From contig JAQXPK010000082.1 in the NCBI GenBank assembly GCA_029100605.1, positions 1-40,609 of the forward strand: a DNA stretch of 40,609 bases, written 5' to 3'. Both the position numbers and the translations under genes were made by a program. The DNA is from Bacillota bacterium (GTDB lineage Bacteria; Bacillota; Clostridia; Oscillospirales; Oscillospiraceae). The notes beneath the pieces are model-generated. The model worked only from the letters and a program-made list of their open reading frames with translations. It did no database searches and was not told where the DNA came from. Shown here piece by piece: positions 257-13,326 of this stretch. The number at the start of each line of letters is the position of its first letter. The stretch's first letter is position 1.

Positions 257-1105
257 TCACATATAAATAATCAGCAGGCCGGTCAGAAGACCGATGATCA
301 CGGCGGTAGCCGGGAGCTTGGAGCGCCACATGAGGATGGACTCCGGCAGCAGTTCGCCGAATACCACATACAGCATGGCGCCGGAGGCGAAGCTCAGCGA
401 CAGCGCCAGGGCAATGGGTCCCATGGCTCCCACGGTGAAGCCGAGCAGCGCGCCCAGAATGGTGGGAAAGCCTGTCAGCGCCGTGACGATCACGGCACGC
501 CATTTCGGCATTCCCCCGGAGATCAGCGGCACGGCGACCGCCATCCCCTCCGGAATGTTGTGCAGGCCAATGACGATTGCCATGGTCAGCCCGCCCCGGT
601 TCAAAAGGGTCTGCTTGGCGGTGCGGGCGAAGGACGCGCCGATGACCATGCCCTCCGGCACATTGTGCAGCGCAATGGCGGCTGCCATCACCAGCCCCGC
701 CAGGAACAATCCGCTGCGGGGCTGGCGGCCCTCCCGGTGCTCCTGCAAATGGTTCGCATGGGTCAACTCCTCCAGGGAGTCGGCGGTGCGGGGATGGTTC
801 TCGTCGATATGGGCCACCTCGTGGTTGGTATTGCGGTCAATCCAGGCGTTCAGCAAAGCGATCACCACATAGCCAACCAGAATTCCCGCCACAACCAGCC
901 AAACGTTGGTACTCATTTGATTCGGGTGCAGCGCCTCCGTCAGCAGGTCAAAACACACCACAGCGGTCATGACCCCCGCGGCAAAGGACAGAAGCAGGCT
1001 GACAGTCTTGCTGGAATCCTTGCGGAACAGGCAGGAGACCAGTCCACCCATCCCCGTTCCACCCATGCCGGCAAGGGCCGTTATCCCGATGATACTCCAT
1101 ATCAT
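257..1105 (-). CDS. ZIP family divalent metal transporter
   Basis: Predicted inner-membrane carrier that brings zinc or a related divalent metal (Mn, Fe) into the cytoplasm. About 282 residues with several hydrophobic helices. The two family hallmarks are present as LHNVPEGM and LHNIPEGM; in ZIP proteins these His, Asn, Pro-Glu-Gly residues of helices 4 and 5 form the binuclear metal site. A hydrophilic loop of about 50 residues, rich in His, Asp and Glu, precedes helix 4. I chose ATG at 1105, 12 bases after AAGGAGG; a TTG at 1114 in the same frame is only 3 bases from that site. The gene stands alone with its own promoter (1154-1182), a leader palindrome and a terminator. Family call is firm; the metal is not determined. 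Confidence 0.9.
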   Translation of the reverse strand: MIWSIIGITALAGMGGTGMGGLVSCLFRKDSSKTVSLLLSFAAGVMTAVVCFDLLTEALHPNQMSTNVWLVVAGILVGYVVIALLNAWIDRNTNHEVAHIDENHPRTADSLEELTHANHLQEHREGRQPRSGLFLAGLVMAAAIALHNVPEGMVIGASFARTAKQTLLNRGGLTMAIVIGLHNIPEGMAVAVPLISGGMPKWRAVIVTALTGFPTILGALLGFTVGAMGPIALALSLSFASGAMLYVVFGELLPESILMWRSKLPATAVIIGLLTGLLIIYM

Positions 1106-1126
1106 GTTTTCCAAATGCCTCCTTGT

Positions 1127-1724: not shown

Positions 1725-3746
1725 ATGCAAACAATGAAACGACTGCTCGCCGCCGTGCTGACCCTGACCATGGTTTTCGCGCTGGCTGCCTGCGGCGGAA
1801 ACTCCGGCGCGGCTGACAGTGCCACCACAGGTGCCGCCGCTCCTGCGGAGACCGCCGCTCCTGTGACCGAGAACGCGGTGTACAGAACCCTGTATGCCTC
1901 CGAGGTCACCACCCTGAACTACCTGATCACCGGTCGGACCAACGAGCTGACCATCGCCGCCAACGTGGTAGACTGCCTGGTGGAGTATGACTCCTACGGC
2001 AACGTTCAGGCTGCTCTGGCAACCGACTGGGAGCAGAATGAGGACGCCACCGTCTGGACCTTCCACATCCGTGAGGGTGTGAACTGGGTCGACAAGGACG
2101 GCAACGTTGTCGCTCCCGTCACCGCCAACGACTGGGTCTCTTCCGCCCGGTATGTCTGTGACGCCGCCAACGATTCCGACACCTTCTACCTGATGGGCGA
2201 CGTTGTCGCCGGCGCCAACGCGTACTACGACTGGACCGCCTACCAGATGGCTCTGCCTACCGCCACCGACGGCACCGATGAAAACGGCAACCCCGTGAAG
2301 ATCATCACCGACGAGGACGGTGAAGAGTCTGTCCTGGAGGAGGTTCCCGAAGCCTCCGTTGAAGACATCGGCGTCAAGGCGCTGGATGACTACACCCTGG
2401 AATTCACCCTGGAGTCTCCCCGCCCTTACTTCCTGTCCATGGTCTCCTTCGGCCCCTACATGCCTGTGTACGGCCCCTTCCTGGAGCAGTGCGGCAGCAA
2501 GTTCGGCACGGATAACAGCAACCTTCTGTACAACGGTGCGTTCGTTCTGTCCACCTATCAGCCCCAGCAGCAGCGTGTCCTGACCAAGAACGCCTCCTAC
2601 TGGGATAAGGACAATGTGTTCCTGGACGCCATCCAGATGACCTACAACGCCGAGGCCTCCTCTATCTCCACCACCATGTACCAGTCCGGTGAAGTGGATC
2701 AGGCGGACGTTTCCTCCAACCTGCTGTCTGCCATGATGGCTGATCCCGCCACCAAGGATCTGATCCATCCCACCCGTTCCGATACTTCCTACGCCTACTG
2801 GTATCTGTTCAACTTCGATCCCAACTTTGACGAAGAGTATGAGCCGGAGAACTGGAACCTCGCCGTGAACAACGAGAACTTCCGCAAGTCCATCGTTCAC
2901 GCCTTCAACCGGATGCCTGCTCTGGCGACCAACGACCGCATCGATCCCGAATCCTTGAAGTGCAACACCATCACCCCCTCCGGCTTTGCCTCCGCCTCCA
3001 AGGATTACGCCTACTACGGCGACCTTGCCAAGTACACCGAGGGCGACAACTTTGACGCCGATCTGGCGCTGGAGTATAAGGAAAAGGCCGTTGAGGAGCT
3101 GACCGCCGCCGGTGCCACTTTCCCCGTGAAGATGCTCATGTGCTTCAACCCCACCTCCCCCAACTGGGCAGAGGAGTGCCAGGTTGTAGAGCAGACCATT
3201 GAGAACATTCTGGGCAGCGACTATGTGGACATCATCGTCCAGGCCGGCCCCGAAACCGGTTTCCTGAGCGCCATCCGCCGCAGCGGCAAGTATGCCTTCA
3301 TGAAGTGCAACTGGGGCGCTGACTACGCTGATCCCGAGACCTGGACCGATCCCTTCATCAGCTGGACGGACAGCAACGGTGAAGTGGACAGCAACAGCTA
3401 CAGCTTCATCTGCAACAGCACCGATCCCACGACCCAGGCTCTGTACGCGGAGTATATGGATCTGGTGAACGCCGCCAAGGCCATCACCGACCCCAACGAG
3501 ATGGATGCCCGGTATGAAGCCTTCGCCAAGGCCGAGGCTTTCCTGCTGGATCACGCCTTCGCCATTCCCTTCTCCATCAGCAACCGCAGCTATCAGATGT
3601 GCAACCTGAACACCTTCGAGGGTCAGTACGCCTCCTTCGGTATGGCGAACCTGCGCTACAAGGGTGAGCATCTGTATTCCACCTCCATGAGCCTGGAGCA
3701 GTACCAGCAGGCCTACGCCGATTGGCAGGCCAAGATGGCTGGCTGA
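1725..3746 (+). CDS. Peptide ABC transporter substrate-binding lipoprotein (OppA/DppA-binding-protein family)
   Basis: Solute-binding protein of the SBP_bac_5 family, anchored outside the membrane, that delivers peptides to the permease encoded next. About 673 residues, longer than the usual 530-550. It begins with a type II signal peptide ending in LAAC, so Cys23 would be lipidated. An acidic insert (about residues 185-210, many Asp and Glu) accounts for part of the extra length. ATG at 1725 is preferred because AAAGGA lies 9 bases before it; the in-frame ATG at 1716 touches that site. It is the first gene of the operon and is separated from the permeases by hairpins that may favour its mRNA. 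Substrate is inferred from the downstream murein-peptide enzymes: D-amino-acid-containing cell-wall peptides. Sequence alone does not prove this. Confidence 0.9.
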   Translation: MQTMKRLLAAVLTLTMVFALAACGGNSGAADSATTGAAAPAETAAPVTENAVYRTLYASEVTTLNYLITGRTNELTIAANVVDCLVEYDSYGNVQAALATDWEQNEDATVWTFHIREGVNWVDKDGNVVAPVTANDWVSSARYVCDAANDSDTFYLMGDVVAGANAYYDWTAYQMALPTATDGTDENGNPVKIITDEDGEESVLEEVPEASVEDIGVKALDDYTLEFTLESPRPYFLSMVSFGPYMPVYGPFLEQCGSKFGTDNSNLLYNGAFVLSTYQPQQQRVLTKNASYWDKDNVFLDAIQMTYNAEASSISTTMYQSGEVDQADVSSNLLSAMMADPATKDLIHPTRSDTSYAYWYLFNFDPNFDEEYEPENWNLAVNNENFRKSIVHAFNRMPALATNDRIDPESLKCNTITPSGFASASKDYAYYGDLAKYTEGDNFDADLALEYKEKAVEELTAAGATFPVKMLMCFNPTSPNWAEECQVVEQTIENILGSDYVDIIVQAGPETGFLSAIRRSGKYAFMKCNWGADYADPETWTDPFISWTDSNGEVDSNSYSFICNSTDPTTQALYAEYMDLVNAAKAITDPNEMDARYEAFAKAEAFLLDHAFAIPFSISNRSYQMCNLNTFEGQYASFGMANLRYKGEHLYSTSMSLEQYQQAYADWQAKMAG

Positions 3747-3770
3747 TTTCCGGCACACAACGCAAATTAC

Positions 3771-3802
3771 GAGAGAAGCCCTCGCCTTCGGGGGCTTCTC
3801 TC
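3771..3802 (+). other. Intercistronic hairpin between the binding protein and permease genes
   Basis: GAGAGAAGCCC (3771-3781) and GGGCTTCTCTC (3792-3802) pair perfectly over 11 bp around a 10-base loop. No T-run follows, so it is not a classic terminator. Such hairpins after binding-protein genes are known to protect the upstream mRNA and raise its yield relative to the permease genes. A second imperfect hairpin lies at 3838-3871. Confidence 0.6.
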
Positions 3803-3908
3803 AAAGCCGTATTATTTGGTTTCGTTTTCGGAGCCTGTACCGGTGCCGCTCCCAGGGAAACGGCAGCGGTATTGGCTCTGAGCCGCGCACAACCCAGGAG
3901 GACTTCAT

Positions 3909-4877
3909 ATGGCAAAATACATAACAAAACGCGTCCTGCGATCTCTCGTCACCATGTTCATCATCATCACGGTTCTCTTTGCCCTTCTGCGGCTGATGCC
4001 TATCGAGGGATACTTTGAAAACTACGACAAGATGAGCGCCACCCAGGTGCAGGTCAAACTTCAATCCCTCGGCCTGACCGATTCGCTGCCCAAGCAGCTT
4101 CTGCGGTTTTACAAGCAGATTTTCCACGGCGATCTGGGGGAATCCAACGTCTACCGCAAGGGCGTTGCCATCACGGAGATCATCGCGGAGAAAATTCCCA
4201 TTTCCCTGAAGCTGGGGCTGATCTCCCTGGCCATCGCTCTGGCGGTGGGACTTCCCCTGGGCGTGCTGATGGCCCGGAGCACCCGGACGCGGTTCAAAAT
4301 TGGAGACCGGCTGGGCACGGTGTTCATCGTGCTGGTGCAGGCCATGCCCTCGGCTGTGTATCACATTCTGATCCAGTTTGCCGGTTCCCAGACCTACATC
4401 GGCAAGGAAATTCTGGGTCTGCCCATGCTGTTCGACGCGTCCAACCCCAAAAGCTACATTCTTCCCGTGATTTCTCTGTCCATCGGCAACATTGCCTACT
4501 ACGCCATGTGGCTGCGGCGGTACATGGTGGACGAGTCCAACAAGGACTATATCCGCCTGGCCCGGGCCAAGGGCGTTCCGAACAGCAAAATTTCCTTCCG
4601 CCACGTGTTCCGCAACGCCTTTGTCCCTCTGGTGCAGTACATCCCCAACTCCATCCTGTTTACCCTGATGGGCTCGCTGTACGTGGAATCTCTGTACTCC
4701 GTGCCCGGTATGGGCGGCCTGCTGGTCACCGCCATCAAGCGCCAGGACAACACCCTGGTGCAGGCGCTGGTGCTGATTTACGCCGTGATTTCCATTCTGG
4801 GTCTGCTCTTCGGCGACATTCTCATGGGCATCGTCGATCCCCGGATCAGTTTCGCAAAGAAGGAGGGCTCCCGCTGA
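3909..4877 (+). CDS. Peptide ABC transporter permease, DppB/OppB type
   Basis: First membrane subunit of the importer, 322 residues. It has an N-terminal helix, a periplasmic stretch, then a core of about five more helices. The cytoplasmic coupling loop (EAA motif) reads DYIRLARAKGV and docks on the ATPases. AGGAGG precedes ATG at 3909. The stop codon overlaps the start of the next permease gene (TGATG), which indicates translational coupling. Together with the next three genes it forms a typical five-part peptide importer. Confidence 0.92.
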   Translation: MAKYITKRVLRSLVTMFIIITVLFALLRLMPIEGYFENYDKMSATQVQVKLQSLGLTDSLPKQLLRFYKQIFHGDLGESNVYRKGVAITEIIAEKIPISLKLGLISLAIALAVGLPLGVLMARSTRTRFKIGDRLGTVFIVLVQAMPSAVYHILIQFAGSQTYIGKEILGLPMLFDASNPKSYILPVISLSIGNIAYYAMWLRRYMVDESNKDYIRLARAKGVPNSKISFRHVFRNAFVPLVQYIPNSILFTLMGSLYVESLYSVPGMGGLLVTAIKRQDNTLVQALVLIYAVISILGLLFGDILMGIVDPRISFAKKEGSR

Positions 4878-5908
4878 TGAAACGTTCTTCCTTCCGTCCC
4901 ATCCGCCGCCAGATGACCGAAGCTCTGGAGGACAAGCTCACCGAGCAGCTGAAGCAGGAGGTGCACCCCCCGATGTCCGACGAGGAGGCCTTCTCCTTCG
5001 CCGAATTCAACGCCGAGGACGCGGAGCGGGGCGGCTATTCCGATTATTCCTACTGGAAGTCCACCCTCCGGGCTTTTTTCCAGAACAAAATCGCTGTGTT
5101 TTTCCTCATCGTCATGGTGACGGTGCTGTTGTTCACCTTCATCCAGCCCTATCTGCCCGGTCAGAAGGATCCCCTGCTGATTCACAATGACGAATGGGGT
5201 CTGCCCCTGAACAACATTCCACCCAACAAGGAATTCTGGTTCGGCACCAACGCCATCGGTCAGGATCTCTGGGCGAGAATCTGGTCCGGCACCCGCACTT
5301 CTTTGTTCATCGGCTTCACCGTAGCTCTGGTGGAAGCCGTAGTCGGCATCTTCGTGGGAATTCTGTGGGGCTATGTCCGCAAGCTGGATTTCTTCTTTAC
5401 GGAGCTGTATAACATTCTGGACAACATTCCCCAGACATTGCTTCTGATCCTGATCTCCTACGTGCTGAAGCCCGGCGTATCCACCATCATCTTTGCCCTG
5501 TCCCTGACCGGCTGGCTGGATATGGCTCGGTTCATCCGCAATCAGATCATCATTATCCGGGATCGGGACTACAACCTGGCCTCCCGGTGCCTGGGCATCT
5601 CCACCGGGCGGATTATGGTCAAGAATCTGCTGCCCTACCTGGTATCCGTGATTACCATGCGCATGGCGCTGGCAATCCCCTCCGCCATCGGCAACGAGGT
5701 GTTTGTCACCTATATTGGCATCGGCCTGCCGGTGGACATTCCCTCTCTGGGCAACCTGATTCAGACCGGACGCTCCCTGATGACCGTAGCGTCTCTGCGC
5801 TACCAGCTGTTCTTCCCCGTAGCCGTGCTGGTGGTCATTACTGTCTCTTTCTACATCATCGGCAACGCCTTCGCCGACGCCGCCGATCCCAAAAACCACG
5901 TCAAATAA
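4877..5908 (+). CDS. Peptide ABC transporter permease, DppC/OppC type
   Basis: Second membrane subunit, 343 residues. It has an unusually long, charged N-terminal segment of about 65 residues before the first helix (FFLIVMVTVLLFTF), then the OppC_N and BPD_transp_1 core. The EAA-like loop reads RDYNLASRCLGIS. ATG at 4877 overlaps the previous stop codon and is preceded by AGGAGGG. It pairs with the DppB-like subunit to form the channel. Confidence 0.92.
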   Translation: MKRSSFRPIRRQMTEALEDKLTEQLKQEVHPPMSDEEAFSFAEFNAEDAERGGYSDYSYWKSTLRAFFQNKIAVFFLIVMVTVLLFTFIQPYLPGQKDPLLIHNDEWGLPLNNIPPNKEFWFGTNAIGQDLWARIWSGTRTSLFIGFTVALVEAVVGIFVGILWGYVRKLDFFFTELYNILDNIPQTLLLILISYVLKPGVSTIIFALSLTGWLDMARFIRNQIIIIRDRDYNLASRCLGISTGRIMVKNLLPYLVSVITMRMALAIPSAIGNEVFVTYIGIGLPVDIPSLGNLIQTGRSLMTVASLRYQLFFPVAVLVVITVSFYIIGNAFADAADPKNHVK

Positions 5909-5921
5909 GGAGGGAAATGCT

Positions 5922-6968
5922 GTGGACGATCAAAATGTCATTCTCTCCATCCGGGATTTGAACGTGAAATTCACCCTTCGCGGTCAGGTTCTCCACGCCA
6001 TCCGCGGCGTGTCCCTGGACGTGTATCAGGGCGAAAGCCTCGCCATCGTAGGCGAATCCGGCTCCGGTAAATCCGTGTTCGTCAAGTGCACCATGGGTCT
6101 GCTGGACGCCAACGGCTTTATCGACAGCGGCTCTATCCTCTACAACGGCATGGATCTGACCAAGTTCAAAACCGACAAGGACTGGCTGAAAATCCGGGGT
6201 CGGGAAATCGCCATGGTGTTCCAGGATCCCATGACCTCCCTCAACCCCCTGAAAACCATCGGCAAGCAGATCCAGGAAGCCGTGGAGCTGCACCAGGGGC
6301 TCAGGGGCAAGGCGGCCTATGACGCCGTTCTGGAGGTGCTCTCCGACGTGGGCATCGACGATCCCCCGCGGCGCTACGGGCAGTACCCCCACGAATTTTC
6401 CGGCGGTATGCGCCAACGGGTGGTCATCGCCATCGCCGTGGCCTGCCGTCCCAAAATTCTGATCTGTGACGAGCCCACCACCGCCCTGGACGTGACCATT
6501 CAGGCGCAGATTCTGGAGCTTATCAAGGCCATGCAGAAAAAGTACAACCTGACCACCATCTACATCACCCATGATCTGGGCGTGGTCGCCAACGTGGCTG
6601 ACCGGATCGCCGTTATGTACGCGGGGGATATTGTGGAGCTAGGTAAGTGCGACGAGGTGTTCTACGACCCCCGGCACCCCTACACCTGGGCGCTGCTGTC
6701 CTCCCTGCCCCAGCTGGGCGTCAAGGACGAGCCACTGTACTCCATTCAGGGTACGCCGCCCAACCTTTTCCACGAGGTGAAGGGCGATGCCTTTGCCCCC
6801 CGGAACCCCAAAGCACTGAAAATCGACTTTGTAGAGCGGCCTCCCTTCTTTGAGGTGACGCCTACCCACTATGCCCGCACCTGGCTGCTGGATCCCCGGG
6901 CTCCCAAGGTGGAGCCGCCGGAGCACGTCCGCGTTCTGCGGGAGAAGGGAGTGAACCGCGTTGGCTGA
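5922..6968 (+). CDS. Peptide ABC transporter ATPase, DppD/OppD type
   Basis: Cytoplasmic ATPase driving peptide import, 348 residues. Motifs in order: Walker A GESGSGKS (Lys50), Q-loop [11 protein letters not shown], signature FSGGMRQRV, Walker [12 protein letters not shown], switch histidine in YITHDLGVV, and the C-terminal oligopeptide-ABC extension beginning [12 protein letters not shown]. The start is GTG at 5922, directed by AAGGAGGG that overlaps the previous stop codon; the nearby ATG at 5917 is out of frame. It works as a heterodimer with the next gene product. Confidence 0.93.
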
Positions 6969-7896
6969 AGACAGAAAGAAGCTGGTGGAAGTCCAGGATC
7001 TCACCGTGCAGTTCGGCTCCCGGCGGCATCCCTTTACCGCGGTGGACAAGGTTTCCTTCCACATTTATCAGGGCGAGACCTTCGGCCTGGTGGGCGAGTC
7101 CGGCTCCGGCAAGACCACTATCGGCCGCGCCATCATCCGCATTCACCCCACCGCAGGCGGTAAGATCCTATTCGACGGGAAACAGATCAATGGACGGATT
7201 TCCCGATCCCTGGATCGGGAGGTCACCCGGCGGATTCAGATGATCTTCCAGGATCCTATGTCCTCCCTGAACGAACGAGCCAAGGTGGACTATATTGTCA
7301 GTGAGGGACTGTACGCCGGTGGACACCACACTCCGGAAGAAGAGCGCAAGGCGAAGGTCGCCAAAGCCCTGTCCGATGTGGGTCTGCTGCCCGAATTTGC
7401 CAGCCGGTTTCCCCACGAGTTCTCCGGCGGTCAGCGCCAGCGTATCGGCATTGCCCGGGCGCTGATTATGGAGCCGGACTTCATCATCGCCGACGAGCCC
7501 ATTTCCGCCCTGGACGTATCCATCCGGGCTCAGGTGCTGAATCTGCTGTCCAAGCTCCAGAAGGAGCGGAACCTCACCTATTTGTTCATTGCCCACGATC
7601 TGTCGGTGGTTCGCTTCATCTGCGACCGCATCGCCGTCATCCACAAGGGCAAGATCGTGGAGCTGGCGGAAAGCGAGGAGCTGTTCGCCCATCCCCTGCA
7701 CCCCTACACCCGGGCGCTGCTGTCCGCCATTCCCCAGCCCGACCCCATCGCGGAGCGGCAGAAGAAGCTCCTTGTCTACGACCCCAGCTGCCACCACTAC
7801 AGCGAAACCAACCAGCCCGCCTGGACCGAGATCGTTCCCGGTCACTTTGTCCTCGCCAGCGAGGAAGAGCTGGAAGCCTACAGAAAACAGTTTTGA
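6961..7896 (+). CDS. Peptide ABC transporter ATPase, DppF/OppF type
   Basis: Second ATPase of the importer, 311 residues. Walker [10 protein letters not shown] (Lys51), Q-loop [11 protein letters not shown], signature [15 protein letters not shown], Walker [13 protein letters not shown], switch histidine in FIAHDLSVV, and the family tail [16 protein letters not shown]. Start is TTG at 6961, which overlaps the end of the previous gene by 8 bases; GGGAG lies upstream. A strong hairpin with a T-tract follows this gene and separates the transporter genes from the enzyme genes. Confidence 0.93.
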
Positions 7897-7903
7897 TTTT
7901 CTT

Positions 7904-7954
7904 TTGCAAGCAGAACACAGGCGCGTGTTCTGCTTGCAACCATTTTCTTTTTTT
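7904..7954 (+). terminator. Terminator-like hairpin inside the operon (possible attenuator)
   Basis: Perfect 15-bp stem: TTGCAAGCAGAACAC (7904-7918), 6-base loop, GTGTTCTGCTTGCAA (7925-7939). CCATTTTCTTTTTTT follows after the stem. The ldcA-like gene starts at 7967, so this must be a partial or regulated terminator if the enzymes are expressed from the operon promoter. Confidence 0.75.
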
Positions 7955-7966
7955 GAGGTATCTGCC

Positions 7967-8884
7967 ATGATCGAACCCAAGCCTCTGTTTCCCGGCGCCC
8001 GGGTGGCGCTGGTGGGCCCCGCCTCCGCCGTGCCGGAGGAAAAGCTTCAGCCTGCCCTTGACCTGGTTCGGCAGCTGGGCATGGAGCCAGTGCCGTACCC
8101 CTCCTGCTATTTTGCCAACCGGGACGGCTACTTTGCCGCCTCCGACACCCAGCGGGGGGCGGACATCAACCGTGCCTTTGCCGATCAAACCATCGACGGC
8201 ATCTGGTGTATCCGGGGCGGCTACGGCGCTCACCGGATTCTGCCCCTGCTGGACGCCGAGCTCATCCGCCGCAATCCCAAGTGGTTCGGCGGTTACTCCG
8301 ATGTCACCGCCCTGCACACCTTCCTGAATCAGGTCTGCGGTCTCGTCACCTACCACTGCACCATGCCCTCCACGGAGCCGCACCCGGACGATTACACCCT
8401 GGGGTATCTGAAAAAGGCTCTGTTTGGCGGTCTTACCGGCTCCCTTTCCAATCCAGAGGGGCAAGGCATCCGCACGCTGGTGCCGGGACAGGCGGAGGGC
8501 GTCCTCTGCGGCGGCAATCTTTCTCTGCTGGCAGCTTCCTTGGGCACGCCCTGGGAAATCGAGACAAAGGGCAAGCTGCTCTTTCTGGAGGACATCGGAG
8601 AAAAGACCTACCGCATTGACAGTATGCTCACCCAGCTGCGCAACGCCGGGAAATTTCGGGACTGCGCCGGCATCCTTCTGGGTGCCTGGACGGACTGCGT
8701 GCCGGAAATGCCGGAGCGCACGCTGACCCTGGACGAGATCTTTGCCCAGCTCATTGTCCCCACAGGGAAGCCCGCCGTTATGAACGTTGCCTGCGGCCAC
8801 TGTGCCACGACGATGGCTCTGCCCATGGGCGGAAATTGCCGTCTGGACGCGGATAAGCGCGAAATCACGCTGGAAGGGGTGTAA
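7967..8884 (+). CDS. ldcA: LD-carboxypeptidase, S66 family (LdcA/YkfA-like)
   Basis: Predicted cytoplasmic serine peptidase that removes the terminal D-Ala from murein tetrapeptides. About 305 residues, normal for the family, and no signal peptide. Features: N-terminal GPASA, IRGGYGAHRILPLLD, nucleophile Ser111 in GYSDVTALH, GGNLSLLAASLGTP, the acidic member in LEDIGEKTYRID (Glu208 or Glu212), and His278 in CGHCATT. The Ser-to-His spacing of 167 is close to that of characterised LdcA enzymes. ATG at 7967 has GAGG 9 bases upstream. First of four tightly packed hydrolase genes (gaps of 2, 1 and 15 bases). The S66 family also includes the microcin C immunity enzyme MccF, so a different amide substrate is possible, but the context favours murein peptides. 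Confidence 0.87.
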   Translation: MIEPKPLFPGARVALVGPASAVPEEKLQPALDLVRQLGMEPVPYPSCYFANRDGYFAASDTQRGADINRAFADQTIDGIWCIRGGYGAHRILPLLDAELIRRNPKWFGGYSDVTALHTFLNQVCGLVTYHCTMPSTEPHPDDYTLGYLKKALFGGLTGSLSNPEGQGIRTLVPGQAEGVLCGGNLSLLAASLGTPWEIETKGKLLFLEDIGEKTYRIDSMLTQLRNAGKFRDCAGILLGAWTDCVPEMPERTLTLDEIFAQLIVPTGKPAVMNVACGHCATTMALPMGGNCRLDADKREITLEGV

Positions 8885-8886
8885 AC

Positions 8887-9684
8887 ATGGACACGCTCAC
8901 AAAAAAACTGGAGGCGGTCATGGATGCCTTTCCCGCCAAATCCGCGCTGTACTGCGTCGATCTCACCACGCAGACACCCATCGCCGCCATCCGGGAAACC
9001 ACCCGGGTCGTTTCCGCCTCCACCATCAAGGTGCCCATTTTGTGCTGCGCCCTACAGGATGTGATGGAGGGGAGACTATCGCTTCAGCAGAGTCTGGCAA
9101 TCACGCCAGACAATTTCTGTGATGACACGGAGGTCTTTGAGCCTGGCTACCGCCGCGACGGCGCGACCCTCTGGGAGATGCTGTACTGGATGATCGTCTC
9201 CAGCGACAACACCGCCACCAACACGGTGATCTCTCTGCTGGGCTACGACCACGTCAACCGTTACTGCGAAGCAATCGGCCTGTCCCAGACCTCTCTTCAG
9301 CGGAAAATGCTGGACTACCAGGCCATTGCGGAGGGGCGGAACAACTACACCTCACCCCTTGATCTGTACCGGGTGTTCTCCCTGCTGTACCGGGGGGAAA
9401 TCCTGACCCAGAGCCTCCGGGACGTGGCCTTTGACTTTCTCTCCCGCTGCCGCAGCACCGACGCGCTGCAGCGCTACATTCCCGACCCCGTCCCTGTACT
9501 CCATAAGCCCGGCGGGCTGGATCACCTGAACCACGACGCGGGCATTTTCCTGCTGAAAGACCGCCCCTACTATCTGGGCGTCTTTACCTGGGACGGCCCC
9601 GCGCTGGACGGACAGCCCCAGCAGAACCGGCTCATCGGGCAGCTGTCCCGGATGGTTTATGACGCCATGAAAGGAGAATGCTGA
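8887..9684 (+). CDS. Class A beta-lactamase-fold serine hydrolase, probably not a beta-lactamase
   Basis: 265 residues, no signal peptide, so probably cytoplasmic. It has the acyl-serine motif S45-T-I-K48 and S106-D-N108 of the beta-lactamase/transpeptidase superfamily. The class A general-base Glu166 region is replaced: the stretch LQRKMLDYQ carries no Glu and no ExxLN motif. The third motif, normally K-T/S-G, is K207-P-G209. These changes argue against efficient beta-lactam hydrolysis and suggest a peptidase or esterase, or a binding role. The gene begins 2 bases after the ldcA-like gene and ends 1 base before the NlpC/P60 gene, so it must be co-translated with them. Its likely substrate is an imported cell-wall peptide, an inference from context only. 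Confidence 0.82.
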   Translation: MDTLTKKLEAVMDAFPAKSALYCVDLTTQTPIAAIRETTRVVSASTIKVPILCCALQDVMEGRLSLQQSLAITPDNFCDDTEVFEPGYRRDGATLWEMLYWMIVSSDNTATNTVISLLGYDHVNRYCEAIGLSQTSLQRKMLDYQAIAEGRNNYTSPLDLYRVFSLLYRGEILTQSLRDVAFDFLSRCRSTDALQRYIPDPVPVLHKPGGLDHLNHDAGIFLLKDRPYYLGVFTWDGPALDGQPQQNRLIGQLSRMVYDAMKGEC

Positions 9685-9685
9685 G

Positions 9686-10504
9686 ATGAAAGCCATTGTG
9701 AAGGTTCCCGTCTGCTCCCTGCTTGCCGCGCCCACCCGGGAAAGCACTCTGGAGGACGAGGTGCTTTACGGCATGGTGGTGGAGATCCTCGAAGCGCCGG
9801 CTCCCGGCTGGTATCGTATCCGCACCCACTACCGCTATGAGGGCATCGTCTCCGGGGAGGATCTGCTCGTGGACGACGAGGCCGCCGCCCGGTGGGAAGC
9901 ACTGCCCAAAAAGGTCATCCGCAACAAGAATTTCTGTGACGTGCTCTCTGAGCCAAAGGTGCAGGGCTGGATCCTCGCCGCCCTGCCCCGGGGCGGGGTC
10001 GTATCCCCCGTGGGGCAGCCGGAGAAAGGCTGGCGGAAGATTCTTCTGGTGGACGGAAGAACGGGGTTTCTACCGGAGAGTATCCTGTCCGACCTTCCCA
10101 CCGCGCCAGTGTCCCAGGACGAAAGCGTACTGCGTCAGGCGCTGGTGGATTCCGCCATGCTCTACCGGGGCACCCACTACCGCTGGGGCGGAAAATCCCC
10201 CATGGGCATCGACTGCTCCGGCCTTTGCTCCATGGCCTATCTGCTTTGCGGCATCCTCATCTACCGGGACGCTCATATCCGGGAGGACTTCCCCATTCAC
10301 GAAATCCCCATAGAAGCCATCAAGCCCGGGGACCTGCTGTTTTTCCCCGGTCACGTCGCCATGTACATCGGCTCCGGCCGCTACTGCCACAGCACCGGCA
10401 AGCACGGAGACAACGGCTTCACCGTCAATTCCCTGATCCCCAGTGACCCCGATTATCGGGCGGATCTGCGTGAGCATATCACCCAGGTCGGCTCCTATTT
10501 TTGA
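9686..10504 (+). CDS. SH3-NlpC/P60 endopeptidase, YkfC-like
   Basis: Predicted gamma-D-glutamyl-L-diamino-acid endopeptidase acting on free murein peptides. 272 residues: two SH3-like segments (about 1-65 and 75-135), then the NlpC/P60 domain. Catalytic residues appear as Cys177 in GIDCSG, His223 in FFPGHVAMY and His235 in RYCHST; the 12-residue His-His spacing is what I recall for Bacillus YkfC. There is no signal peptide, as in YkfC, which acts on imported peptides with a free N-terminal L-Ala. It starts 1 base after the preceding stop. In B. subtilis ykfC also sits in an operon with an S66 carboxypeptidase gene (ykfA) and a peptide transporter gene. The YkfB epimerase is absent here. Confidence 0.88.
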   Translation: MKAIVKVPVCSLLAAPTRESTLEDEVLYGMVVEILEAPAPGWYRIRTHYRYEGIVSGEDLLVDDEAAARWEALPKKVIRNKNFCDVLSEPKVQGWILAALPRGGVVSPVGQPEKGWRKILLVDGRTGFLPESILSDLPTAPVSQDESVLRQALVDSAMLYRGTHYRWGGKSPMGIDCSGLCSMAYLLCGILIYRDAHIREDFPIHEIPIEAIKPGDLLFFPGHVAMYIGSGRYCHSTGKHGDNGFTVNSLIPSDPDYRADLREHITQVGSYF

Positions 10505-10519
10505 GAAAGGAAGAATTCT

Positions 10520-11329
10520 ATGAAAGTTTTTTTGAGCGCGGATATGGAAGGCACCTGCGGCGTCGTCTCCTGGCCCGAGACGGAGCCTGCCACTCCCTTT
10601 GACTACGCCCCCATGCAGAAGCAGATGACCCGTGAGGTGGCAGCCGCCTGCCGGGGCGCTCTGGCCGCCGGTGCGGAAGAGGTTCTGGTGAAGGACGCCC
10701 ACGACTCCGCCCGGAACATTGACCCCACTGCCCTGCCCCGGAACATCCGCATGAACCGGAGCTGGTCCGGCGACCCCTTAAGCATGATGAGCGGCCTGAA
10801 TCAGGAGAAATTCGACGCCGTGTTCTTCACCGGCTACCACGCTTGGGCCGGCTGCCCCGGCAACCCCCTGAGCCACACCATGAACGGCAAAAACAACCAT
10901 GTTTTCCTCAACGGCACGCTGTGCAGCGAGTTTCTCCTCAATTCCTACACCGCCGGCTATTACGGCGTTCCCGTGGCTCTGCTCACCGGCGACAAGGCGC
11001 TGTGTGACTTTGCCAAAACGCTGATTCCCGCCATCACCACCGTCCCCGTCAATGTGGGCCGGGGCGGCAGCGTCACCTCATTGCATCCCGACGAGGCGGT
11101 GGAGCGCATTGAAGCGGCGGCGAAGGAGGCGGCGGCAAAGGCCGATCAGTGCGTCGTCCCCATGCCGGAACACTTCCACATGGAGATCGACTTTTTCAAG
11201 CACCATGTGGCCTACTCCAAGAGCTTCTACCCCGGCGCCGTGCTGAAGGACGACAAGATCGTCTGCTTCGACTCCGACGACTGGTTTGAAATGCTCCGCT
11301 TCTGCCACTTTGTCCTCAGCGACGGCTGA
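10520..11329 (+). CDS. dppA: D-aminopeptidase, M55 family (DppA-like)
   Basis: Zinc D-aminopeptidase that in B. subtilis splits D-Ala-D-Ala and related peptides. 269 residues, close to the 274 of DppA. It opens with MKVFLSADMEGTCGV; the metal ligands of the family can be placed at Asp8, Glu10, His61 (in KDAHDS), His107 (in TGYHAW) and Glu137 (in LCSEF), with the further conserved His119 in SHTMNG. No signal peptide. Last gene of the operon, with GAAAGGAAG before ATG and a strong terminator 15 bases after the stop. In Bacillus dppA lies directly before the dppBCDE importer, so the association is ancient although the order differs. Confidence 0.92.
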   Translation: MKVFLSADMEGTCGVVSWPETEPATPFDYAPMQKQMTREVAAACRGALAAGAEEVLVKDAHDSARNIDPTALPRNIRMNRSWSGDPLSMMSGLNQEKFDAVFFTGYHAWAGCPGNPLSHTMNGKNNHVFLNGTLCSEFLLNSYTAGYYGVPVALLTGDKALCDFAKTLIPAITTVPVNVGRGGSVTSLHPDEAVERIEAAAKEAAAKADQCVVPMPEHFHMEIDFFKHHVAYSKSFYPGAVLKDDKIVCFDSDDWFEMLRFCHFVLSDG

Positions 11330-11344
11330 GTTTTCCACAAACGC

Positions 11345-11382
11345 AAGGGTATGCGCCTTCCCGGCGCATACCCTTTTCTTTT
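11345..11382 (+). terminator. Strong intrinsic terminator of the peptide operon
   Basis: AAGGGTATGCGCC (11345-11357), 5-base loop, GGCGCATACCCTT (11363-11375): a perfect 13-bp stem followed by TTCTTTT. It closes the nine-gene unit. Confidence 0.92.
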
Positions 11383-11490: not shown

Positions 11491-12093
11491 ATGAAGAAGA
11501 GCGAAAGAACAGAACTCACCGTTTCCCGGATTGTGGACGCGGCAATGGAAGAGTTCGGGAAGAACGGATACGCCGGCGGAACCGTGAACAACATCTGCAA
11601 GACGGGAATCAACAAGGGGCTGCTCTACCACAATTTCTCCGGAAAGGACGCCCTCTACCTTGCCTGTCTCAGGCGTAGCTGCGAAAAACTGACGGCGTAC
11701 CTTCGGGAGCGGGACGCCGGGTCGGACTTGAAGCGGTACATGGAAGCCCGTATGGCTTTTTTCGACACCTTCCCCAATGAAGCCCATATTTTCTTTGAGG
11801 CGCTGCTCAATCCCCCCGCGGGTCTTTCCGCTGAAGTTGCCGACGCATTGTCGGACTTTACCGTGCTGAATGAGGAAGTCTTTCAAAAATTCATGAACAC
11901 CCTCCGGCTTCGCGATGGCGTAACCAGGGAGAACGCCCTTTCCTATTGTCACCTGATACAGACCATGTTCAACGGCTACTTCAGCAGCCCGGCCTTTCAG
12001 AGCATCCCACTGACGGAAAAGGCAAAAATCCACGAAGAAGCCACTTCCAGACTGTTGGATTACATGATTTACGGAATTGCAAAGGGAGAATAA
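11491..12093 (+). CDS. TetR/AcrR family transcriptional repressor
   Basis: 200 residues. The N-terminal three-helix DNA-binding domain (about residues 8-58) contains IVDAAMEEFGKNGYAGGTVNNICKTG in two parts, followed by the family-typical GLLYHNFSGKDALYLACL. The C-terminal ligand domain shows no recognisable specificity. ATG at 11491 is chosen because GGAGG lies 5 bases upstream; an upstream in-frame ATG at 11434 falls inside the operator and has no ribosome binding site. It is 3 bases from the antiporter gene, so both are on one transcript controlled by the palindromic operator. Confidence 0.9.
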   Translation: MKKSERTELTVSRIVDAAMEEFGKNGYAGGTVNNICKTGINKGLLYHNFSGKDALYLACLRRSCEKLTAYLRERDAGSDLKRYMEARMAFFDTFPNEAHIFFEALLNPPAGLSAEVADALSDFTVLNEEVFQKFMNTLRLRDGVTRENALSYCHLIQTMFNGYFSSPAFQSIPLTEKAKIHEEATSRLLDYMIYGIAKGE

Positions 12094-12096
12094 AAT

Positions 12097-13326
12097 ATGG
12101 TTGGTTATTTGCTGCGTTGGTTGCTAACCCTCGCCGCTGCTTTCCTCGCCGGGAAGCTGATGGCGAAAATCAAAATGCCCTCGATCTTGGGATGGTTGAT
12201 TGCGGGTATGCTCCTTGGCCCCCATGCGGTGGGGCTGATGCCTCAGACGATCTTGGACGCCGGGTGGTATCGCCTGATTATCATGTGGATGCAGTGCGCT
12301 TTCGGCGTTATGCTGGGAGCTGAGTTGATCTGGAAGAAGCTCAAAAGCTACGGAAAGGCGCTGGTCATCACAACTCTGACCCAATCCCTTGGCACGTTTG
12401 CCTTGGTCAGTCTTGCCTTTGGAATCATATTTGCGGTAACCGAGGTACCGATCTACCTGGCGTTTGTCTTCGGCGGAATCGCCCTCGCCACAGCGCCTGC
12501 GCCGGCACTGTCGATCGTCAACGAGTTCCACGCGAAAGGGCCGGTGACCGACACGCTTCTGCCCATGACAGTACTGGACGATGTTGTGGGAATCGCGGTT
12601 TTCTTTACCGTCAATTCCCTGGTGGCACGGGCGGTTTCCGGCGGTGCCGTTCCCCTGGTCATGATTCCCGTCATGATCTTTCTTCCCATTGTTGTGGGTG
12701 GCGTCGTTGGGCTTCCCACCGGCCTGCTGCTGAAACGATGCCGGAAAAAGGCACCCACGCTGGCTGTGCTGCTCCTGGGCATTACCGTCACCATGGGAAT
12801 CGGCTGGACGCTCAATACCTTCCTGCTCACCGGAATTACCCTGAACTATATGCTGATGGGCGTCTCCTTCGCCGCCGTTTTTTCCAATCTCGTACCGGAG
12901 GCACGGTTAAACGAGATTTCCGCTGACTTCTCCCCCGTACTGGGTGTTTCCCTGCTGGCAGCAATCGTCGATCTGGGCGCGCCCCTGAATTATCACCTGA
13001 TCCTGGGGGCGGGACTGTATACCTTCGTCTACATTCTCTCCCGCGCCTGCGGCAAGTATTTCGGCGCAAGATTCGGTGCCAGAATCACGGGTATGCCGGG
13101 CACGGTGCGGAAGTACCTCGGTTTGACCCTGCTCCCCCATTCCGGCGTATCCCTGGTGTTTACGGGAATCATATGTTCCACCCTTGCCTCTGTGCCGCAG
13201 CTTGTGCAGATCGTCCAGGGCACAATCGCTGCCGCTGCCGTTATCAACGAGTTTATTGCGGTAATCGCCGCGAAAAAGGGCTTTGAATTGGCAAAGGAAA
13301 TTCCAAAGGCACCAAAAACAGCATGA
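12097..13326 (+). CDS. CPA2 family cation:proton antiporter (Kef/NapA type membrane domain)
   Basis: 409 residues, almost entirely hydrophobic, about 12 helices, Na_H_Exchanger domain. The sequence opens with the typical PSILGWLIAGMLLGP. The double aspartate of the ion path is Asp161-Asp162 in VLDDVVGI. There is no C-terminal TrkA nucleotide-binding domain as in Kef channels, so it is probably a Na+/H+ or K+/H+ exchanger, or an unknown monovalent ion exporter. It is co-transcribed with the TetR gene (3-base gap), which implies induction by a small molecule rather than by pH alone. The substrate cannot be read from sequence. Confidence 0.87.
   Translation: MVGYLLRWLLTLAAAFLAGKLMAKIKMPSILGWLIAGMLLGPHAVGLMPQTILDAGWYRLIIMWMQCAFGVMLGAELIWKKLKSYGKALVITTLTQSLGTFALVSLAFGIIFAVTEVPIYLAFVFGGIALATAPAPALSIVNEFHAKGPVTDTLLPMTVLDDVVGIAVFFTVNSLVARAVSGGAVPLVMIPVMIFLPIVVGGVVGLPTGLLLKRCRKKAPTLAVLLLGITVTMGIGWTLNTFLLTGITLNYMLMGVSFAAVFSNLVPEARLNEISADFSPVLGVSLLAAIVDLGAPLNYHLILGAGLYTFVYILSRACGKYFGARFGARITGMPGTVRKYLGLTLLPHSGVSLVFTGIICSTLASVPQLVQIVQGTIAAAAVINEFIAVIAAKKGFELAKEIPKAPKTA

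What the first reader, a model, noticed from the sequence alone, without database searches (positions are those of the whole stretch)
1725..11329. Nine-gene operon that seems to import and fully dismantle cell-wall peptides
The sequence shows a lipoprotein, two permeases and two ATPases of the peptide ABC family followed, almost without gaps, by S66 carboxypeptidase, beta-lactamase-fold protein, SH3-NlpC/P60 endopeptidase and M55 D-aminopeptidase, closed by a strong terminator. In B. subtilis the corresponding functions are divided between dppABCDE (M55 enzyme with importer) and ykfABCD (S66, epimerase, NlpC/P60, ATPase). All four hydrolases lack signal peptides, so they must act on imported material. 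Inference: the organism feeds on murein peptides (its own turnover or that of neighbours) in the gut. The L-Ala-D/L-Glu epimerase is absent, so the dipeptide product must be handled elsewhere.
Basis: partly seen in the sequence, partly recalled or inferred. Interest (0 to 1): 0.72.

Follow-up and report, generated by a model that had tools for sequence, protein, structure and literature searches.

The report
Cell-wall-peptide import and breakdown operon
This bacterial genome carries nine adjacent genes, for a peptide importer and four enzymes of peptide-cutting families, that are predicted to take up cell-wall peptides and break them down, and a gene for the likely missing enzyme (an epimerase) lies elsewhere in the same genome and heads the same gene block in a relative.

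Summary
Nine same-strand genes at 1725-11329 encode a lipoprotein SBP, OppB, OppC, OppD, OppF, an S66 LD-carboxypeptidase, a class-A-beta-lactamase-fold protein (BLF), a YkfC-type NlpC/P60 endopeptidase and an M55 D-aminopeptidase, followed by a terminator-like hairpin. Six other genome records show the same nine-gene order. The murein-peptide reading gains independent support. The "missing" L-Ala-D/L-Glu epimerase (AEE) is on another contig of the same genome, beside a PepV dipeptidase. It heads the nine-gene order in Pullichristensenella and sits with the homologous importer in other loci. Within the genus, 6 of 6 operon-bearing genomes have AEE, against 2 of 43 others. The novel element is BLF. 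Its closest solved relative is PBP-A, a DD-peptidase. It keeps SxxK, SDN and KxG, has no glutamate at the beta-lactamase deacylation position, has no signal peptide, and its near relatives lie within 10 kb of AEE in 8 of 12 other genomes. I infer a cytosolic DD-carboxypeptidase that trims pentapeptides for S66. One genome has the operon without BLF, so BLF is an accessory. A covarying RNA hairpin lies between SBP and OppB. Ligand specificity, feeding versus recycling, and gut habitat are untested.

The parts
1725..3746 (+). SBP: lipoprotein substrate-binding protein, SBP_bac_5, closest solved relatives pneumococcal AliC/AliB/AmiA
   Evidence: LAAC lipobox in the sequence
3771..3802 (+). 14-pair stem-loop shortly after the SBP stop; stem-loops of like kind are folded at this place in several operon loci
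3828..3882 (+). covarying RNA hairpin between SBP and OppB (model R1), found once (+ strand) in each of 7 operon-bearing genomes of the genus
3909..4877 (+). OppB-type permease
4877..5908 (+). OppC-type permease
5922..6968 (+). OppD-type ATPase
6961..7896 (+). OppF-type ATPase
7904..7939 (+). 15-pair hairpin followed by a T-rich stretch between importer and hydrolase genes (possible attenuator); hairpins here differ among relatives or are absent
7967..8884 (+). S66 LD-carboxypeptidase, Ser111-Glu208-His278 conserved in 17 of 17 sequences aligned
8887..9684 (+). BLF: class-A-beta-lactamase-fold serine hydrolase without signal peptide, SxxK/SDN/KxG kept, no Glu at the Glu166 position; predicted cytosolic DD-carboxypeptidase
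9686..10504 (+). YkfC-type NlpC/P60 gamma-D-Glu-diamino-acid endopeptidase with SH3, Tyr51/Asp195 specificity pair and Cys177-His223-His235
10520..11329 (+). M55 D-aminopeptidase, the six residues aligned with the B. subtilis DppA zinc and catalytic positions are kept
11345..11375 (+). terminator-like hairpin closing the operon

Best explanation
The nine genes encode a lipoprotein-dependent Opp-type peptide importer and four hydrolases of murein-peptide-cutting families, which are predicted to take up free murein stem peptides and dismantle them in the cytosol. Proposed steps (all inferred from family, residues and gene neighbourhood): (1) the SBP and OppBCDF import L-Ala-gamma-D-Glu-mDAP(-D-Ala(-D-Ala)). 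(2) BLF, a PBP-A-like penicillin-recognising enzyme without a beta-lactamase's deacylating glutamate, removes the terminal D-Ala of pentapeptides. (3) S66 removes the next D-Ala. (4) The YkfC-type NlpC/P60 enzyme, which by its Tyr/Asp pair requires a free N-terminal L-Ala, releases the diamino acid and L-Ala-D-Glu. (5) M55 cleaves D-Ala-D-Ala and other D-aminoacyl peptides. (6) L-Ala-D-Glu is converted to L-Ala-L-Glu by the AEE encoded on contig C120, and split by the PepV dipeptidase encoded next to it. Shown: gene content, order, residue conservation, conservation of the order in other genomes, and association of the operon with AEE in cis and in trans.
For: Family matches and closest solved structures: S66 with muramoyltetrapeptide carboxypeptidase 6uuk and PA5198, NlpC as an alignment profile with dipeptidyl-peptidase VI 3npf/3pvq over positions 4-259 of 272 (as a single sequence 2hbw comes first), M55 with B. 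subtilis DppA 1hi9, BLF with TLL2115/PBP-A 2j7v, SBP with AliC/AliB/AmiA. The YkfC-subfamily residues defined in PMC2954226 (Tyr118 and Asp256 of BcYkfC) align with Tyr51 and Asp195, kept in 20 of 20 sequences. AEE on C120: best solved match B. subtilis AEE 1jpm, E 1.4e-105; eight residues checked (KxK, D, E, D, K and DxD) kept in 14 of 14 copies; the adjacent gene passes the PepV cut-off, 467.7 vs 435 bits. AEE in cis with this importer: L015 = AEE plus all nine genes in the same order; L016 = AEE-SBP-OppBCDF-S66-BLF-NlpC; L053 = S66-AEE-SBP-OppBCDF-BLF-NlpC; L046 = BLF-AEE-SBP-OppBCDF. In trans: of 49 same-genus genomes, the 6 with the operon all have AEE, and 2 of the other 43 do (Fisher p 2e-6, not corrected for kinship). 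BLF near relatives (E <= 1e-30) in a 391-genome class sample: 8 of 12 other genomes have AEE within 10 kb, 6 of them within 105 nt; AEE occurs in 12 of 13 such genomes (own included) and in 21 of 378 others.
Against: No ligand or activity was measured. In the NCBIfam lists shown (best 25 where more matched) none of the nine proteins reaches an equivalog cut-off (for example S66 126 of 378 bits, M55/DppA 147.5 of 430). G504 carries the operon without BLF, so BLF is not needed for the rest. PepV is not beside AEE in G532, G498 and G504. Of the seven loci whose upstream side is held, five (L006, L007, L008, L010, L013) have no AEE match there; whether those genomes carry it elsewhere was not searched. 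In L057 and L059 the BLF-AEE-NlpC-M55 set sits with an importer whose SBP and permeases are only 24-34% identical, so the enzymes are not tied to one transporter lineage. L016 has no M55 match. Of the 12 strong BLF genomes, 3 have AEE on another contig and 1 has none; six of the 12 are of one family. PBP-A showed no activity on non-amidated peptide at neutral pH, so D-Ala removal by BLF may need amidated substrates.
Confidence: 0.8

Rival explanations
1. A general nutritional oligopeptide importer that happens to be followed by peptidases; murein peptides are only a minor substrate.
For: The closest solved SBP relatives are pneumococcal oligopeptide-binding proteins AliC/AliB/AmiA, and specificity cannot be read from the sequence.
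Against: The gene order is conserved over large divergence; all four enzymes are of murein or D-amino-acid peptide families; the same importer lineage lies beside the dipeptide epimerase in L015, L016, L053 and L046; the own genome has six SBP_bac_5 matches on five contigs, so other importers may serve ordinary peptides.
Confidence: 0.12
2. BLF is a beta-lactamase (drug resistance) carried in the operon, linking muropeptide sensing to resistance.
For: NCBIfam's best match is the class A beta-lactamase model (95.8 bits, 200 needed), and one database name reads 'class A beta-lactamase-related serine hydrolase'.
Against: Below the cut-off of each of the 25 families shown, of 45 matched; no Glu in any of 19 aligned sequences at the position where chain 2j9o carries Glu; no signal-like N-terminus; beside AEE in loci with no importer match in the fetched stretch, such as L047, L058 and L052.
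Confidence: 0.05
3. BLF has another murein-peptide activity than DD-carboxypeptidase, such as DD-endopeptidase on imported cross-linked peptides, or an amidase or peptidase acting close to the L-Ala-D-Glu step, which would explain its adjacency to AEE.
For: PBP-A has both DD-carboxypeptidase and DD-endopeptidase activity (PMC11189452). BLF is directly beside AEE in loci whose fetched stretch has no S66 match (L055, L056, L057, L059).
Against: PBP-A assays showed D-Ala release from (amidated) pentapeptides; nothing here distinguishes the options.
Confidence: 0.4
4. The operon serves recycling of the cell's own wall turnover, not feeding on neighbours.
For: In B. licheniformis/subtilis YkfABCD are placed in turnover catabolism (PMC3305447).
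Against: Found in only 6 of 49 same-genus genomes (many of them incomplete drafts), so hardly a housekeeping recycling function; but gain and loss cannot be tied to diet here.
Confidence: 0.4

Closest known systems
B. subtilis ykfABCD next to the dpp operon
   Same: S66, AEE, NlpC/P60 and an ATPase beside a dipeptide ABC transporter (passages of PMC2954226 and PMC3305447); the M55 enzyme DppA there is from the finding and from recall
   Different: Here one operon with a complete importer of another lineage; AEE is on another contig in the window's genome; an extra BLF gene is present
YkfC / dipeptidyl-peptidase VI subfamily of NlpC/P60
   Same: SH3 plus NlpC/P60, the Asp and Tyr that bind the free L-Ala amine, the catalytic triad, and no signal peptide, as in B. 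subtilis YkfC
   Different: Ala in place of BcYkfC Ser257, as in DPP VI; only one SH3 region is reported by Pfam
PBP-A of Thermosynechococcus (TLL2115)
   Same: Closest solved relative of BLF; SxxK, SDN, KxG; no Glu at the deacylation position
   Different: PBP-A has a predicted N-terminal membrane anchor (PMC11189452); BLF has neither anchor nor signal peptide and lies in an importer operon
B. subtilis L-Ala-D/L-Glu epimerase YkfB (1jpm/1tkk)
   Same: C120 gene matches over nearly its whole length with catalytic and DxD residues kept
   Different: Encoded away from the operon in this genome, beside PepV and a HAD phosphatase

Membership tests
YkfC subfamily of NlpC/P60 | Asp equivalent to BcYkfC Asp256 and Tyr equivalent to Tyr118 in the SH3 domain (definition in PMC2954226) | tested here: met
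   Asp195 and Tyr51 align with the Asp and Tyr of 3npf/3pvq and are kept in 20 of 20 sequences; the alignment to BcYkfC 3h41 itself was not printed
YkfC subfamily of NlpC/P60 | catalytic Cys-His-His | tested here: met
   Cys177, His223, His235 in 20 of 20 sequences
YkfC subfamily of NlpC/P60 | two N-terminal SH3b domains (non-cyanobacterial members) | tested here: inconclusive
   Pfam reports one SH3 region at 12-60; near full-length alignment to 3npf/3pvq is compatible with a second
S66 LD-carboxypeptidase | N and C domains plus Ser-Glu-His | tested here: met
   Ser111/Glu208/His278 in 17 of 17 sequences; triad identity recalled from the family
S66 muramoyltetrapeptide carboxypeptidase equivalog NF008424 | score over 378 bits | tested here: not met
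   126.2 bits
M55 D-aminopeptidase | family match and metal/catalytic residues | tested here: met
   292.5 bits; D8, E10, H61, H107, H119, E137 kept in each locus as far as its match covers them (L012 and L053 partial); residue roles recalled
DppA equivalog NF058634 | score over 430 bits | tested here: not met
   147.5 bits: filed as M55, not as DppA
class A beta-lactamase | Glu166 that deacylates the enzyme | tested here: not met
   Met141 at the aligned position, no Glu in any of 19 aligned sequences; by sequence alignment only
class A beta-lactamase | export signal | tested here: not met
   hydropathy of the N-terminus
PBP-A-like DD-peptidase | SxxK, SDN, KxG, no Glu166 | tested here: met
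PBP-A-like DD-peptidase | D-Ala release from pentapeptide | not testable with these tools
   needs enzyme assay
L-Ala-D/L-Glu epimerase (C120 gene) | KxK, D-E-D, K and the DxD motif for the dipeptide | tested here: met
   14 of 14 copies; 1jpm E 1.4e-105; motif roles recalled
L-Ala-D/L-Glu epimerase (C120 gene) | NCBIfam equivalog cut-offs NF041118 and NF011708 | tested here: not met
   257.9 of 500 and 133.8 of 343
Opp/Dpp-type peptide importer | SBP_bac_5 plus two permeases plus two ATPases with oligo_HPY | tested here: met

The most novel reading that the evidence does not exclude
BLF defines an intracellular family of penicillin-binding-protein-like DD-peptidases devoted to eating or recycling cell-wall peptides: a class-A-beta-lactamase relative that works on imported pentapeptides in the cytosol, coupled genetically to the dipeptide epimerase across clostridial families.
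Probability: 0.45. Interest if true: 0.68.

Novelty: new variant of a known kind. Interest (0 to 1): 0.5.

Why it matters
If right, some uncultured Clostridia can take murein stem peptides to amino acids with one importer operon plus an epimerase-dipeptidase pair. Wall recycling in monoderm bacteria is described as less studied (PMC11382707, passages). By my own inference the YkfC step would destroy gamma-D-Glu-mDAP, a ligand of the host receptor NOD1 (recalled). Genes automatically named 'class A beta-lactamase-related' in these genomes would be murein enzymes and not resistance genes, which matters for resistance surveys. BLF offers a beta-lactamase relative whose physiological substrate can be tested directly.

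Tried and rejected
Beta-lactamase reading of BLF: rejected on residues, missing export signal and neighbourhood. Rfam search of the whole window at gathering thresholds: no match. PHROGs with BLF: one weak family of unknown function, not followed. BLF relatives in lactobacilli (L017-L024, 8 of 22 loci, 26-31% identical) have no S66, NlpC or M55 match nearby; L020 and L024 have importer-like matches some kb away; left aside. L004 carries BLF and NlpC only, between an amidohydrolase and, by eye, a prolyl-tRNA-synthetase-like gene; it was not explained. A structure model of BLF was wanted to confirm the active-site superposition and was not available. The idea that the hairpin between OppF and S66 is a conserved attenuator was dropped: L011, L012, L014 and L015 have only 16-17 nt there.

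Literature: search listings; passages read in PMC2954226, PMC11189452, PMC3305447 and PMC11382707; no paper was read whole. None of these listings showed, by title or start of abstract, a paper on a BLF-AEE link or on this nine-gene operon; the library lacks most subscription papers and all bioRxiv preprints, so this is weak.


Full report
What is there. The window (contig C82 of a 2.01-Mb, 143-contig draft genome, 84% complete) holds nine + strand genes between 1725 and 11329 as described. Each protein matches its Pfam family well above cut-off. A 13-pair terminator-like hairpin follows at 11345-11375, and the next gene is a TetR-type regulator at 11491-12093 with a promoter-like site before it.

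Is it more than chance? A scan of genome contigs with BLF returned 22 loci. In 13 of 22, BLF lies between S66 and NlpC. Six of these (L006, L007, L008, L010, L013, L015) show all nine genes in the same order, L016 (BLF 45% identical) shows eight of the nine plus AEE but no M55, and the other six are cut by a contig end. L004 has only BLF and NlpC. Eight lactobacillus loci have a BLF of 26-31% identity and no S66, NlpC or M55 match. Further full copies are L075, L076 and L083. The operon is patchy: in an order sample of 117 genomes only the own has a BLF match below 1e-30.

The epimerase. The own genome has one MR_MLE_C match, on contig C120. It is a protein of about 365 residues whose best solved relative is B. 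subtilis L-Ala-D/L-Glu epimerase (1jpm, E 1.4e-105). Eight positions (KxK, D, E, D, K, DxD) are kept in 14 of 14 copies examined. It follows a gene that passes the PepV dipeptidase cut-off (467.7 against 435 bits) and a HAD phosphatase.

Cis evidence. L015 (Candidatus Pullichristensenella) has AEE followed by SBP, OppB, OppC, OppD, OppF, S66, BLF, NlpC, M55. L016 has AEE then SBP to NlpC without M55. L053 has S66-AEE-SBP-OppBCDF-BLF-NlpC. L046 has BLF-AEE-SBP-OppBCDF. L056 has BLF-AEE-NlpC-M55, an amidohydrolase, then SBP-OppB-OppC 45-61% identical to ours, where the fetched stretch ends. L055, L057, L059 and L060 also have BLF-AEE-NlpC-M55; in L057 and L059 this lies near an importer whose SBP and permeases are 24-34% and OppD 52-53% identical, and in L055 near an SBP of 25%. 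Of the seven loci whose upstream side is held, two (L015, L016) have AEE there and five do not.

Trans evidence. Of 80 relatives searched, 49 are of the window's genus, own genome included. BLF is in 5 of the 49 and AEE (E <= 1e-60) in 8; all 5 have AEE (p 2.9e-5). The RNA model below revealed a sixth operon, G504, which lacks BLF but has AEE, giving 6 of 6 against 2 of 43 (p 2.0e-6). In G527 and G532 the operon is seen in two contig pieces. These p values ignore kinship, and many of the 49 are incomplete drafts. PepV is beside AEE in G000, G527, G506 and G520, but not in G532, G498 or G504; G500 is cut by a contig end.

BLF. In a class sample of 391 genomes, 104 have some BLF match; 12 besides the own reach E <= 1e-30. 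Eight of these 12 have AEE (E <= 1e-30) within 10 kb on the same contig: gaps 18, 21, 27, 30, 33, 103, 1311 and 6353 nt. Three have AEE on another contig and one has none. AEE is in 12 of the 13 genomes with a strong BLF (own included) and in 21 of the other 378. Among the 91 genomes with only weaker BLF matches, read by hand from the tables, six have AEE and two (G078, G466) have it next to BLF; this serves as an internal control. In the order sample, G041 and G116 (weak BLF matches) also show BLF next to AEE. Six of the 12 strong genomes belong to one family (f46), so the events are fewer than the counts.

BLF residues. In 19 aligned sequences SxxK, SDN and KxG are kept in all. In the 21-sequence alignment A1 Ser45, Lys48, Ser106, Asp107, Asn108, Lys207 and Gly209 are invariant. 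The closest solved chains are 2j7v and 2j9o, TLL2115; these differ in the printed alignments at chain position 158 (Leu and Glu). BLF has Met141 there; 18 of the 19 sequences have Met, one (L046) Leu, none Glu. That 2j9o is an L158E variant made to mimic Glu166, and that TLL2115 is PBP-A, are recalled. PBP-A is a DD-carboxypeptidase and DD-endopeptidase with high specificity for amidated substrates (PMC11189452, passages). Among 20 BLF relatives the most hydrophobic N-terminus is L049 at 1.75, against 2.53 for the SBP. From this I infer a cytosolic DD-carboxypeptidase. The weakest link is the exact reaction, and G504, with the operon but no BLF, shows the step is dispensable.

The other enzymes. 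NlpC keeps the YkfC-subfamily Asp and Tyr and the triad in 20 of 20 sequences; two of them have Gly and not Ala at the BcYkfC Ser257 position. S66 keeps Ser-Glu-His in 17 of 17, and M55 keeps six aligned metal/catalytic positions as far as each match covers them. In the NCBIfam lists shown, none reaches an equivalog cut-off, so I file them by family and not as LdcA or DppA.

RNA hairpin. Between SBP and OppB (3828-3882) lies a 21-pair hairpin. In seven loci 9 of the 21 pairs have changes on both sides that keep pairing; 0 of 500 shuffles reach this, and slid versions give at most 2. The structure was derived from the same sequences, so the slid control favours it somewhat. A model of it searched in 61 same-genus genomes gave strong + strand matches in 7 (E 3.1e-12 or better), each between SBP and OppB, three of them (G504, G527, G532) not used to build the model. 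Weaker - strand matches fall on six of the same places, as expected of a hairpin, and one weak match lies elsewhere (G512, E 0.0046). It has no Rfam match. A role in setting SBP/importer expression ratios or in transcript processing is a guess.

Verdict. Compared with B. subtilis, the parts are known (S66, YkfC type, M55, AEE, importer). The single-operon layout, the epimerase in trans, and the BLF component are the new points. I found no report of the BLF-AEE link in the search listings named under Tried and rejected, in a library that lacks most subscription papers.

Noticed in passing
window 3828-3882; G504, G527, G532, G506, G498, G542: Covarying RNA hairpin between SBP and OppB that marks this operon in the genus; no Rfam family.
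   Followed up: yes
L082 (G504:C57) about 8755-8766: Natural version of the operon with BLF absent: S66 followed about 10 nt later by NlpC.
   Followed up: partly
L054 7801-8982, L067 7320-8480 (also by eye L064 10378-11538, L066 5140-6333): DUF819 permease genes beside AEE and/or PepV or NlpC in other clostridial genomes: a candidate transporter for murein-derived dipeptides or D-Glu. Pfam run on the first two only.
   Followed up: partly
L063 8305-9600, L064 7588-8883, L065 5681-6976: A 431-aa ion-transporter-superfamily permease (CitMHS/GntP/Na-H antiporter matches; Pfam run on the first only) directly beside BLF in three genomes.
   Followed up: partly
L016 3-1427, L056 10579-11934 (by eye also L057, L059): About 450-aa amidohydrolase (Amidohydro_3) near AEE or BLF; perhaps an N-acyl-D-Glu type hydrolase acting on L-Ala-D-Glu.
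   Followed up: partly
L025 9797-12937 (G000:C120): HAD phosphatase - PepV - AEE cassette of the own genome; the phosphatase's role is unknown.
   Followed up: partly
L005 669-1015: 346-nt hairpin-rich stretch between OppF and S66, possibly a small mobile or repeat element.
   Followed up: no
window 257-1114 (-) and 11491-13326 (+): Flanking genes: a membrane protein on the other strand that resembles ZIP-type metal transporters by eye (also one in L025 14303-15097), and a TetR regulator followed by a membrane protein that resembles cation/proton antiporters by eye.
   Followed up: no
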